From Candidatus Nomurabacteria bacterium (GTDB taxonomy: Bacteria > Patescibacteriota > Saccharimonadia > Saccharimonadales > Saccharimonadaceae), in the NCBI GenBank assembly GCA_031290255.1, contig JAITNW010000016.1:1-41784 (forward strand): a DNA stretch of 41,784 nucleotides, given 5' to 3'. The first letter of the stretch is position 1. Each line of letters starts with the position of its first letter. The notes beneath the pieces are model-generated. The model made no database searches. It was not told the origin of the DNA and worked only from the letters and a program-made list of their open reading frames with translations. Shown here piece by piece: positions 27,901 to 29,143 of the stretch. A program made the translations under genes and the position numbers.

Positions 27901-29143
27901 CCATCGGCTGAAGTATAAATATGTCGTAGCCAAGATTGCTAACGTAGTCAGTACGGACATTTATATCCCACAGAATACTTTCCTTAACCACATCGCTCGG
28001 TGAGGGAATATAGGGATCGGTAAAACTATTACAACCATTAACCGTCTGGCAAGTCGTGACATCGCTCGGTTTCTTGCCCAGATCAAACGGCACTGCCACT
28101 GGCTCGCCATCAACGTTATTCAACCGCAAATCTTCATATTCAAACACCCGCCGATTACCAGGGTCGTATGCCGCAGACGCCCAGCGCGCCGCCGTTTCTT
28201 CCTCTGTAAAATCTTCCGTGCCATACATCCAAATACTAAATGTGGAAAAAATGTTGGCGACGTCATAAGATTGAATATTATAAAGGAAAGTCTTATTTGG
28301 CCCGTCATAGCCGATTGGCTTCACCCAATTGTAAGTCGTCAGAACCCAATAGCGAGCATTTTCGGTCACGGACAGTGATCCCTTCCAATTATTTGGGAAA
28401 ACATCACTGCCGCTCGGGTCTTCCTTGACAAGATTTATTGACCCCCAATCTTTTCCGGTGGCGTTATACCACGCCAATACGAAACTAGTTCTGTCGGTTA
28501 TATTTAGTGTTGGGTTATTCAGGCTTTCGCGAACCCATTGCACCGAACTGGCGACGACATACTCATCTGATGAATGCATATCAAACTTAATCGTCACCGC
28601 CTCATCCCGCACCCGCTGATAAACGTTTTGCGAAATCTCCATAGCGCAATCATTCTCTCCGCAGGTGGAGATGGTGGTGGCTTCGGCCGGCGAAAACGCC
28701 AACAACCCGCCGAACAAAATCGCCGCAAGCACAAGGACAGAACCGACGTGGGCGACGAGTTTTTGGCGGCGGAGTTTTTTGATGTGGAAATCGTGATGCT
28801 CAGGGGCGATAGTCGTTTTGAGTTGTGAGATTTTACGGTGATGACAGGTGGTAAGTTGATGGTTAAGAATAATAACCAGAATCATCGAAGCAATGATAAA
28901 TAGGGCGGCGGTGATGGCGATGAGGGCGACCGAAATATCACGGCCGAAAATAGTTCGAGTATCGCCTTGGAGATTGAGGAAACTGGGGTTAATAACTGCC
29001 AAAATCGTGAGAATTAGTGTTGCCAAAATTACAACACTAGCGGTGATTTTTAGCCATAGCGGGACTTTTGCGATATATGTCTTAATCCGCATACTCGCAC
29101 TCCTTTGACTCTCTCTCTCTCTCTCTCTCTCGATTTGCGCCAT
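24950..29143 (-). CDS. Giant membrane-anchored surface protein, candidate phase-variable
   Basis: 1397 residues from the ATG at 29143, chosen for its AGGAGGAGG ribosome site; upstream starts lack one. Three N-terminal membrane segments (~31-50, ~70-94, ~131-150) lead to ~1130 extracellular residues rich in Asp, Thr, Gly and Tyr with scattered cysteines (e.g. STCGENDCAM). A C-terminal membrane helix (FFVLPYLALAVIGGMAL) is preceded by PPNSG and followed by RLNRRRQ and a ~100-residue charged cytoplasmic tail. I recognise no domain. Codons 5-13 alternate GAG/AGA in a (GA)n tract, so slippage would shift the frame; an in-frame ATG at 29092 lies behind it. A twelve-Thr run is coded by 26177-26212. 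It may act in adhesion or host contact (inference). Confidence 0.85.
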   Translation of the reverse strand: MAQIERERERESQRSASMRIKTYIAKVPLWLKITASVVILATLILTILAVINPSFLNLQGDTRTIFGRDISVALIAITAALFIIASMILVIILNHQLTTCHHRKISQLKTTIAPEHHDFHIKKLRRQKLVAHVGSVLVLAAILFGGLLAFSPAEATTISTCGENDCAMEISQNVYQRVRDEAVTIKFDMHSSDEYVVASSVQWVRESLNNPTLNITDRTSFVLAWYNATGKDWGSINLVKEDPSGSDVFPNNWKGSLSVTENARYWVLTTYNWVKPIGYDGPNKTFLYNIQSYDVANIFSTFSIWMYGTEDFTEEETAARWASAAYDPGNRRVFEYEDLRLNNVDGEPVAVPFDLGKKPSDVTTCQTVNGCNSFTDPYIPSPSDVVKESILWDINVRTDYVSNLGYDIFILQPMGAFLDNTYAWNFQIGAKSYPCGTSVATGGFRPVIAPACGQPAIASNGHTWFNQSQQVINHYFPDGFLSPTLNLMTESSPLQTSGGAFNPHRYVMHYAKNINVFQKVEANLVDANGDLLTDLGDNGKWTFYAPRNRNYYCWPESDAHPVPPSSDCTGSQMLVATKGDYTGADDVNRFLAVGGALKPPTDEDYITRGWYFGESSTVVADTNDTSNAGNLYGIDETTGDPIFVNRTDFYGLDMRVHLSGTDADPAVLRGFQTEDGDSVQMYIVYDSTTSITSEVVDRHLRYDTEVTVADDPCTYGTAECRQLPFANDNAEAGIVASGDPLADQGYGSIWPADVHVTAGATGQDFTAQARDDSNYVVGAVAVGAEVYKLIDDTGCPLSSDADTSGCDLSESNRVYIPYTITGAQVAGSPVAVSGGANNFTMPTFDGLPWASQDGFFSVTVDKSEMANNRVFVDFYYEGDTNADNEWKGIPISQKVQVEVWWRGKYGSNVVNTALKGQKIFATRYGYGEICVPNTYTNVADLTLGSSCGGDLDDELTTSEPTMHWLYEGADVLLGDDYTTTTTTTTTTTTYGVIDLTEPVPAYAMFDYQRSTDGENLDIDQEVVIVPMYAPDIDGTDYGVEYALVETIESLLSESVEYDAPTTLAVDGVDYVYVGWSMTDYAQIPLSLAEAMGDGDFHLGEAVSLPAPRVLGERVVVTYYAPADTLLDNNGDDIANYPVAWEVGANLGLGDNLTGNEHLIGSGLNMLAVATKDYFDDAGDGATLLGVKVDDSDYLTNEDYAATHGSTKITLFSKYLDTLIAGIHSLYVHYSDGVTLIGYFEILPKGGSNGGTGGSDDNIAPPNSGMLDVLNSDGAKATFFVLPYLALAVIGGMALEKRLNRRRQRSFAGSDLGDSVSHQPNTEMEEPAETTEMTEFVANSITASSFLNDISDKAEVETDDEPPAVVHHIVEIDVKDGNEKKKTIKTHIAKKAARHTKK
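26177..26212 (-). repeat. Trinucleotide repeat (ACT)12 coding poly-Thr
   Basis: Twelve perfect ACT codons (AGT on the plus strand) encode twelve consecutive Thr between DDY and YGV in the extracellular part of the giant surface protein. A change in copy number would keep the frame and only alter linker length. Confidence 0.97.
29109..29131 (-). repeat. (GA)n tract directly after the start codon of the surface protein
   Basis: A 23-base CT/GA dinucleotide tract (eleven and a half units) spans codons 5-12 of the 1397-residue gene. Loss or gain of one unit shifts the frame right after initiation, the classical layout of a translational phase-variation switch. Confidence 0.95.

What the first reader, a model, noticed from the sequence alone, without database searches (positions are those of the whole stretch)
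29092..29143. (GA)n tract after the start codon: candidate phase-variable giant surface protein
A 23-base GA tract occupies codons 5-12 of a 1397-residue membrane-anchored extracellular protein. Dinucleotide slippage right behind a start codon is a well-known on/off switch in Haemophilus, Neisseria and Helicobacter surface genes. An in-frame ATG (29092) after the tract could give a basal or shortened product.
Basis: partly seen in the sequence, partly recalled or inferred. Interest (0 to 1): 0.75.

Follow-up and report, generated by a model that had tools for sequence, protein, structure and literature searches.

The report
GA-repeat switch of Saccharibacteria surface protein
A slippage-prone GA repeat sits between two ribosome-binding sites at the very start of a giant surface-protein gene of an ultrasmall Saccharibacteria bacterium, and similar repeats stand at the start of many pilin and surface-protein genes across this group, so these tiny episymbionts probably flip surface proteins on and off at random, as some pathogens do.

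Summary
On the minus strand, ATG 29143 has a strong Shine-Dalgarno site and is followed by three codons and a perfect 23-nt (GA)11.5 tract (29109-29131); the frame stays open for 1397 residues. 100 shuffles of the window give no such tract. The host is a Saccharibacteria genome.

Length variation in reads could not be tested. Comparative evidence supports a phase-variable (contingency) locus. Tracts occur in 29 of 392 genomes of the order. Of 64 tracts tested, 30 (47%) stand at the opening of a long ORF with a transmembrane, signal or pilin N-terminus, against 2.4% of random positions. About a third are in frame, as random phase predicts. In sister genome G002 three modules with identical downstream DNA carry 10, 11 and 11 GA units: one closed, two open. 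MutS was not found in any of 44 genomes, so slippage should go unrepaired.

The window gene is therefore best read as a leaky, graded switch rather than strict on/off. The mechanism is classical; I found no report of it in Saccharibacteria in the library searched.

The parts
29162..29167 (-). TATAAT, possible -10 element; would start the transcript near 29155, just ahead of the first SD
   Evidence: sequence; the consensus scan lists no full promoter here because no matching -35 was found, so this is inference
29150..29158 (-). AGGAGGAGG, Shine-Dalgarno site of the upstream start, 6 nt before ATG 29143
   Evidence: only 16 of 834 minus-strand ATGs in the window have such a 6-mer at 4-9 nt
29141..29143 (-). 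ATG, upstream start codon (1397-aa product in the assembled phase)
29109..29131 (-). (GA)11.5 tract coding (ER)n; the proposed slippage site
29100..29105 (-). AAGGAG, Shine-Dalgarno site of the internal start
29090..29092 (-). ATG, in-frame internal start behind the tract (1380-aa product independent of tract phase)
24950..29143 (-). giant surface protein ORF: three N-terminal TM-like segments, ~1100-residue extracellular part, C-terminal TM-like segment and basic tail; no close homologue found
26177..26213 (-). (ACT)12 coding 12 Thr in the extracellular part of the same protein; slippage would change linker length, not frame

Best explanation
A contingency (phase-variation) locus. During replication, strand slippage adds or removes GA units. 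With 11.5 units (or 11.5 plus or minus 3n) ribosomes starting at ATG 29143 read through into the 1397-aa surface protein; with other numbers they read a 17-33 aa peptide and stop. In both closed phases the short ORF runs across the internal ATG 29092 and stops 8-11 or about 40 nt beyond it, so the internal start, which has its own SD, is probably partly blocked or served by re-initiation. Expected result: a high state (both starts) and one or two lower states, heritable and reversible, varying cell by cell a surface protein that probably contacts the host bacterium or environment. Shown: tract, two SD-equipped in-phase starts, frames, recurrence of the arrangement in related genomes, mixed phases, MutS not found. 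Inferred: actual slippage, use of both starts, surface location, role.
For: Tract and frames. No such tract in 100 shuffles. Second tract in the same genome in a leader ORF before a secreted-protein gene. 29 of 392 genomes of the order carry such tracts. 30 of 64 tracts vs 79 of 3240 random positions in the same loci open a >=150-aa ORF within 110 nt with a TM segment in the first 80 aa (odds ratio 35, p 4e-29). Among 32 start-proximal rows 9 are in frame and 23 out of frame in the assembly, near the third expected of a free-running switch. G002: identical 103-147 nt downstream of the tract, 10 GA units closed (14 aa), 11 units open. A G405 pilin cluster has six tandem genes with tracts of 15-35 nt. 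MutS_V not found in 44 of 44 genomes, found in 11 of 14 controls.
Against: No population or strain data: the tract could be fixed in this species. The internal ATG 29092 with AAGGAG may make the tract irrelevant to output. Only 11 of the 29 tract-bearing genomes have a tract of the start-before-TM type, and tracts are not independent (G391, G402, G405 supply most). In-frame/out-of-frame calls rest on predicted starts. MAG tract lengths can be consensus or assembly errors. The window protein has no homologue with a known function.
Confidence: 0.68

Rival explanations
1. Translation starts only (or almost only) at ATG 29092. The GA tract is then a 5'-UTR element, at most changing spacing or mRNA structure, and there is no frame switch.
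For: AAGGAG 7 nt before ATG 29092; the downstream protein begins MRIKTYIAKVPLWLKITASVVIL, a normal signal-anchor start. Almost no other tract locus has such a second start, so this gene may have escaped the switch.
Against: The upstream ATG has an even stronger SD (AGGAGGAGG) and stays in frame through the tract to the gene. Elsewhere the tract lies inside the coding frame with no alternative start.
Confidence: 0.2
2. The tract is a neutral microsatellite, tolerated because mismatch repair is missing, with no selected role.
For: No MutS found in any tested genome, with or without tracts; about half of the tracts in the order lie in other contexts.
Against: Strong enrichment at the start of TM/pilin ORFs, many copies in single genomes always behind the start codon (G405: 7 of 7), and 43 other genus genomes without such tracts though also lacking MutS where tested.
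Confidence: 0.1
3. Length-coding rather than switching: the (ER)n and poly-Thr repeats tune the cytoplasmic N-terminus and an extracellular linker, with slips selected in multiples of three units.
For: The (ACT)12 tract in the same protein can only change length. Orthologous reverse-transcriptase tracts differ by 18 nt (29 vs 47) with the frame kept.
Against: Most start-proximal tracts elsewhere are out of frame in the assembly; units of 2 nt break the frame in two of three steps.
Confidence: 0.05

Closest known systems
Helicobacter pylori oipA-type CT-repeat switch (e.g. PMC10564699)
   Same: CT/GA dinucleotide tract at the 5' end of a surface-protein coding sequence; unit number decides the frame; slipped-strand mispairing proposed
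   Different: Unrelated protein and phylum; in oipA switching is documented, here it is predicted; here an in-frame start with its own SD follows the tract
Neisseria/Haemophilus/Campylobacter contingency loci (PMC11868660, PMC2651432, PMC5084427)
   Same: Several SSR loci per genome in front of or inside surface-structure genes, independent phases
   Different: Those use mono-, penta- or tetranucleotide tracts mostly; Saccharibacteria loci here are mostly dinucleotide GA/CT behind the start codon, in an obligate episymbiont lineage
Hypervariable PTD-repeat surface gene of a Gracilibacterium (PMC6851277)
   Same: Repeat-based variation in a predicted surface protein of a CPR bacterium
   Different: 9-mer repeats coding a tripeptide, in-frame length/sequence variation, no frame switch
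Saccharibacteria type IV pili (PMC12206443)
   Same: Surface structures needed for host binding; pilin genes are among those carrying GA/CT tracts in other Saccharibacteria here
   Different: That paper contains no mention of phase variation or frameshift; the window gene is not a pilin

Membership tests
SSR-mediated phase-variable (contingency) locus | Long pure short-unit tract in the coding frame near the start or in the promoter | tested here: met
SSR-mediated phase-variable (contingency) locus | Unit number not a multiple of 3 nt, so unit change shifts the frame and closes the ORF | tested here: met
   +1 or +2 units give 31- or 21-aa products
SSR-mediated phase-variable (contingency) locus | Unit number varies within a species or population | not testable with these tools
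   one genome per species held; no reads; P0001 has no relative in the collections. Nearest proxy: paralogous modules in G002 with 10 vs 11 units
SSR-mediated phase-variable (contingency) locus | Expression depends on unit number | not testable with these tools
   needs reporter or proteomics; internal ATG 29092 makes strict dependence uncertain
SSR-mediated phase-variable (contingency) locus | Gene product is surface-exposed or modifies the surface | tested here: inconclusive
   TM-like segments by hydropathy, weak CBM_X2 match below cut-off; structure model of a C-terminal piece failed, pLDDT 31
Type IV pilin (N_methyl, PF07963) | Prepilin N-terminal methylation motif | tested here: not met
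   window protein has no such match; pilins in L103-L106, L115 do show the motif

The most novel reading that the evidence does not exclude
Saccharibacteria, obligate episymbionts of other bacteria, run a genome-wide set of dinucleotide contingency loci (pilins, giant anchored proteins, reverse transcriptases, a restriction specificity subunit) made hypermutable by the absence of mismatch repair, including new switch layouts: a dual-start graded switch (window) and a leader ORF whose reading phase decides whether ribosomes reach a terminator hairpin (G000 contig 6), so that attachment to hosts or phage exposure is randomised cell by cell.
Probability: 0.35. Interest if true: 0.82.

Novelty: new member of a known kind. 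Interest (0 to 1): 0.62.

Why it matters
How Saccharibacteria choose and change hosts, and how they avoid host or phage resistance, is open. Random switching of surface proteins and pilins would explain cell-to-cell and strain-to-strain differences in host binding and can be tested at once in existing metagenome reads and in cultivable, genetically tractable Saccharibacteria. It would also extend SSR phase variation, known mainly from pathogens, to reduced-genome episymbionts. Gene callers and MAG binning will mis-annotate the out-of-frame alleles as pseudogenes.

Tried and rejected
Search for relatives of the window protein to compare tract length by orthology: none in genus genomes except a 110-aa, 35% match in G002, none in genome contigs or viral contigs; the G002 relative has no SSR. 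AlphaFold model of residues 1040-1310 failed (pLDDT 31), so no fold search was run. Considered and rejected: tract as type IV pilin leader in the window (no N_methyl motif); tract as assembly artefact (perfect 23-nt tract, shorter than a read, unique flanks, same layout elsewhere); palindromic module of G002 as part of the window locus (core motif absent from the window). My first automatic start assignment put the reverse-transcriptase loci L114/L128 out of frame; an ATG 25 nt before the tract is in frame in both, so phase tallies are approximate.

Full report
What is there. The window is contig C4 of a 697,830-base, 16-contig genome. Its elongation factor G is 86% identical to that of named Candidatus Saccharibacteria genomes, several of them from sheep, goat and yak gut. 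On the minus strand, upstream of the rpsL-rpsG-fusA-tuf cluster, lies one ORF of 1397 codons from ATG 29143. The start is preceded by AGGAGGAGG and followed by GCG CAA ATC and a perfect 23-nt GA tract, then TCAAAGGAGTGCGAGT and a second in-frame ATG at 29092. A 6-mer Shine-Dalgarno site at the right distance is found at only 16 of 834 minus-strand ATGs, so two such starts flanking a tract is a notable layout. The tract is far beyond chance.

The protein. Hydropathy gives three TM-like segments near the N-terminus and one near the C-terminus. Pfam gives only a sub-threshold CBM_X2 match. No relative was found in two collections, and among 61 genomes only a 35% match over about 110 residues. A 12-unit ACT repeat codes poly-Thr in the extracellular part. 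Surface location is an inference; a structure model of one piece failed.

Frame arithmetic. Adding or removing GA units gives 1397 plus or minus 2 aa products every third step, and 17-33 aa products otherwise. In one closed phase the short ORF ends with its stop codon starting 8 nt after the start of ATG 29092; in the other it ends 40 nt after. Ribosomes in closed phases therefore pass over the internal start. Whether this blocks it or feeds it by re-initiation cannot be told from sequence.

Is this layout systematic? A search for GA tracts of at least 15 nt found 2 of 45 genomes of the genus and 29 of 392 genomes of the order. I fetched the surroundings and classified each tract on both strands. 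Of 64 tracts, 37 have a >=150-aa ORF downstream whose frame is closed within 110 nt upstream of the tract; 30 of these have a TM segment in the first 80 residues. Of 3240 random positions in the same loci, 79 do (p 4e-29). Tracts within one genome are not independent; 11 of 29 genomes have at least one such locus. Products include type IV pilins with the N_methyl motif and LamG-like or FGE-sulfatase-like domains (G405: six tandem genes plus two more; G355; G160), proteins with TIG, Ig-like and Fib_succ_major domains, and proteins with no match. The peptide is (ER)n or (LS)n depending on which strand carries GA. By best-scoring start, 9 of 32 rows are open and 23 closed, close to one third; start assignment is uncertain for some.

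Closest thing to a natural experiment. In genus-mate G002 three modules share 103-147 identical bases downstream of the tract and a similar leader (M-x-L-L-N/S-R-S). With 10 units the product is MALLSRSERERERD and stop; with 11 units it continues to the contig end. A fourth copy is closed ahead of a 732-aa TIG-domain protein. Two orthologous reverse-transcriptase loci in different genera, 91-94.5% identical around the tract, have 29 and 47 nt, both in frame from an ATG 25 nt upstream.

Slippage background. The MutS ATPase domain (PF00488) was not found in any of 44 Saccharibacteria genomes, while the control genomes rang in 11 of 14. It is established that MutS-dependent repair corrects slips in mono- and dinucleotide tracts, so such tracts should be unstable here. 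Since genomes without tracts also lack it, this permits rather than explains the tracts.

What sets the window locus apart. In-frame starts with a 6-mer SD between tract and first TM segment were found only here; L090 has a weaker (4-mer) pair and two others isolated 4-mers. For most other loci the frame from the upstream start should decide everything; for this one a phase-independent product is likely. I therefore rate phase-dependent expression at 0.68 and place the strict 'internal start only' rival at 0.2.

Other SSRs of the same genome. A (CT)14.5 tract on contig 6 lies in a 41-codon leader ORF. In the assembled phase the leader's stop codon lies in a stable hairpin followed by UUUUU; in the other phases it stops about 40 nt earlier; a secreted-protein ORF follows. 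The automatic terminator scan did not list this hairpin (its loop is longer than the scan allows), so the attenuator idea is my inference. Two poly-G tracts (16 and 17 nt) stand in one shared promoter-like cassette TTGACAAGGA...G16-17...TAAACTATA before predicted membrane/secreted proteins, like the poly-G spacer promoters of Neisseria (own knowledge).

Literature. Searches of the held library for Saccharibacteria, Patescibacteria or Candidate Phyla Radiation together with phase variation, phase-variable, simple sequence repeat or contingency loci found no report of such loci. A Gracilibacterium 9-mer repeat gene (PMC6851277) is the nearest CPR case. Saccharibacteria pili matter for host binding (PMC12206443). 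Subscription papers and preprints were not searchable.

Verdict. Observation confirmed; interpretation partly supported; a classical mechanism in a lineage where I find no report of it. Decisive data are read-level unit counts and reporter fusions.

Noticed in passing
window 31570-31611 (-) and G000 contig 15:15710-15749 (+), L135: Poly-G tracts of 16 and 17 nt in a shared promoter-like cassette (TTGACAAGGA - G - TAAACTATA) before predicted membrane/secreted proteins; candidate spacer-length promoter switch.
   Followed up: partly
window 26177-26213 (-): (ACT)12 coding 12 threonines in the extracellular part of the same giant protein.
   Followed up: no
L011 6100-6300 (G000 contig 6, about 36100-36300): Leader ORF with (CT)14.5 whose stop codon, in the assembled phase, lies in a hairpin followed by T5 ahead of a secreted 349-aa ORF: possible phase-variable attenuator.
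   Followed up: partly
L104, L105, L106 (G405); L103 (G355); L115 (G160): Type IV pilin-like genes, six in tandem in L104, each with a GA/CT tract behind the start codon; several carry LamG-like or FGE-sulfatase-like C-terminal domains.
   Followed up: partly
L114, L128 (N-terminus); L107, L108 (inside the gene): Reverse-transcriptase genes (PF00078, with IGNLTSQ motif in L107/L108, as in diversity-generating retroelements) carry GA/CT tracts; L114/L128 are orthologues with 29 vs 47 nt.
   Followed up: partly
L131-L134 (G002): A palindromic module follows the GA tract (arms AGCACCAACTCTG...CAGAGTTGGTGCT; inner AGAGAAAACC...GGTTTTCTCT); its core is inverted in L131 relative to the others, and three copies end contigs.
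   Followed up: partly
L125 (G184): GA tract ahead of a type I restriction specificity subunit (Methylase_S).
   Followed up: no
L136 (G002 contig 4, 84-99): ATG followed directly by a 16-nt poly-G at a contig end; possible homopolymer switch.
   Followed up: no
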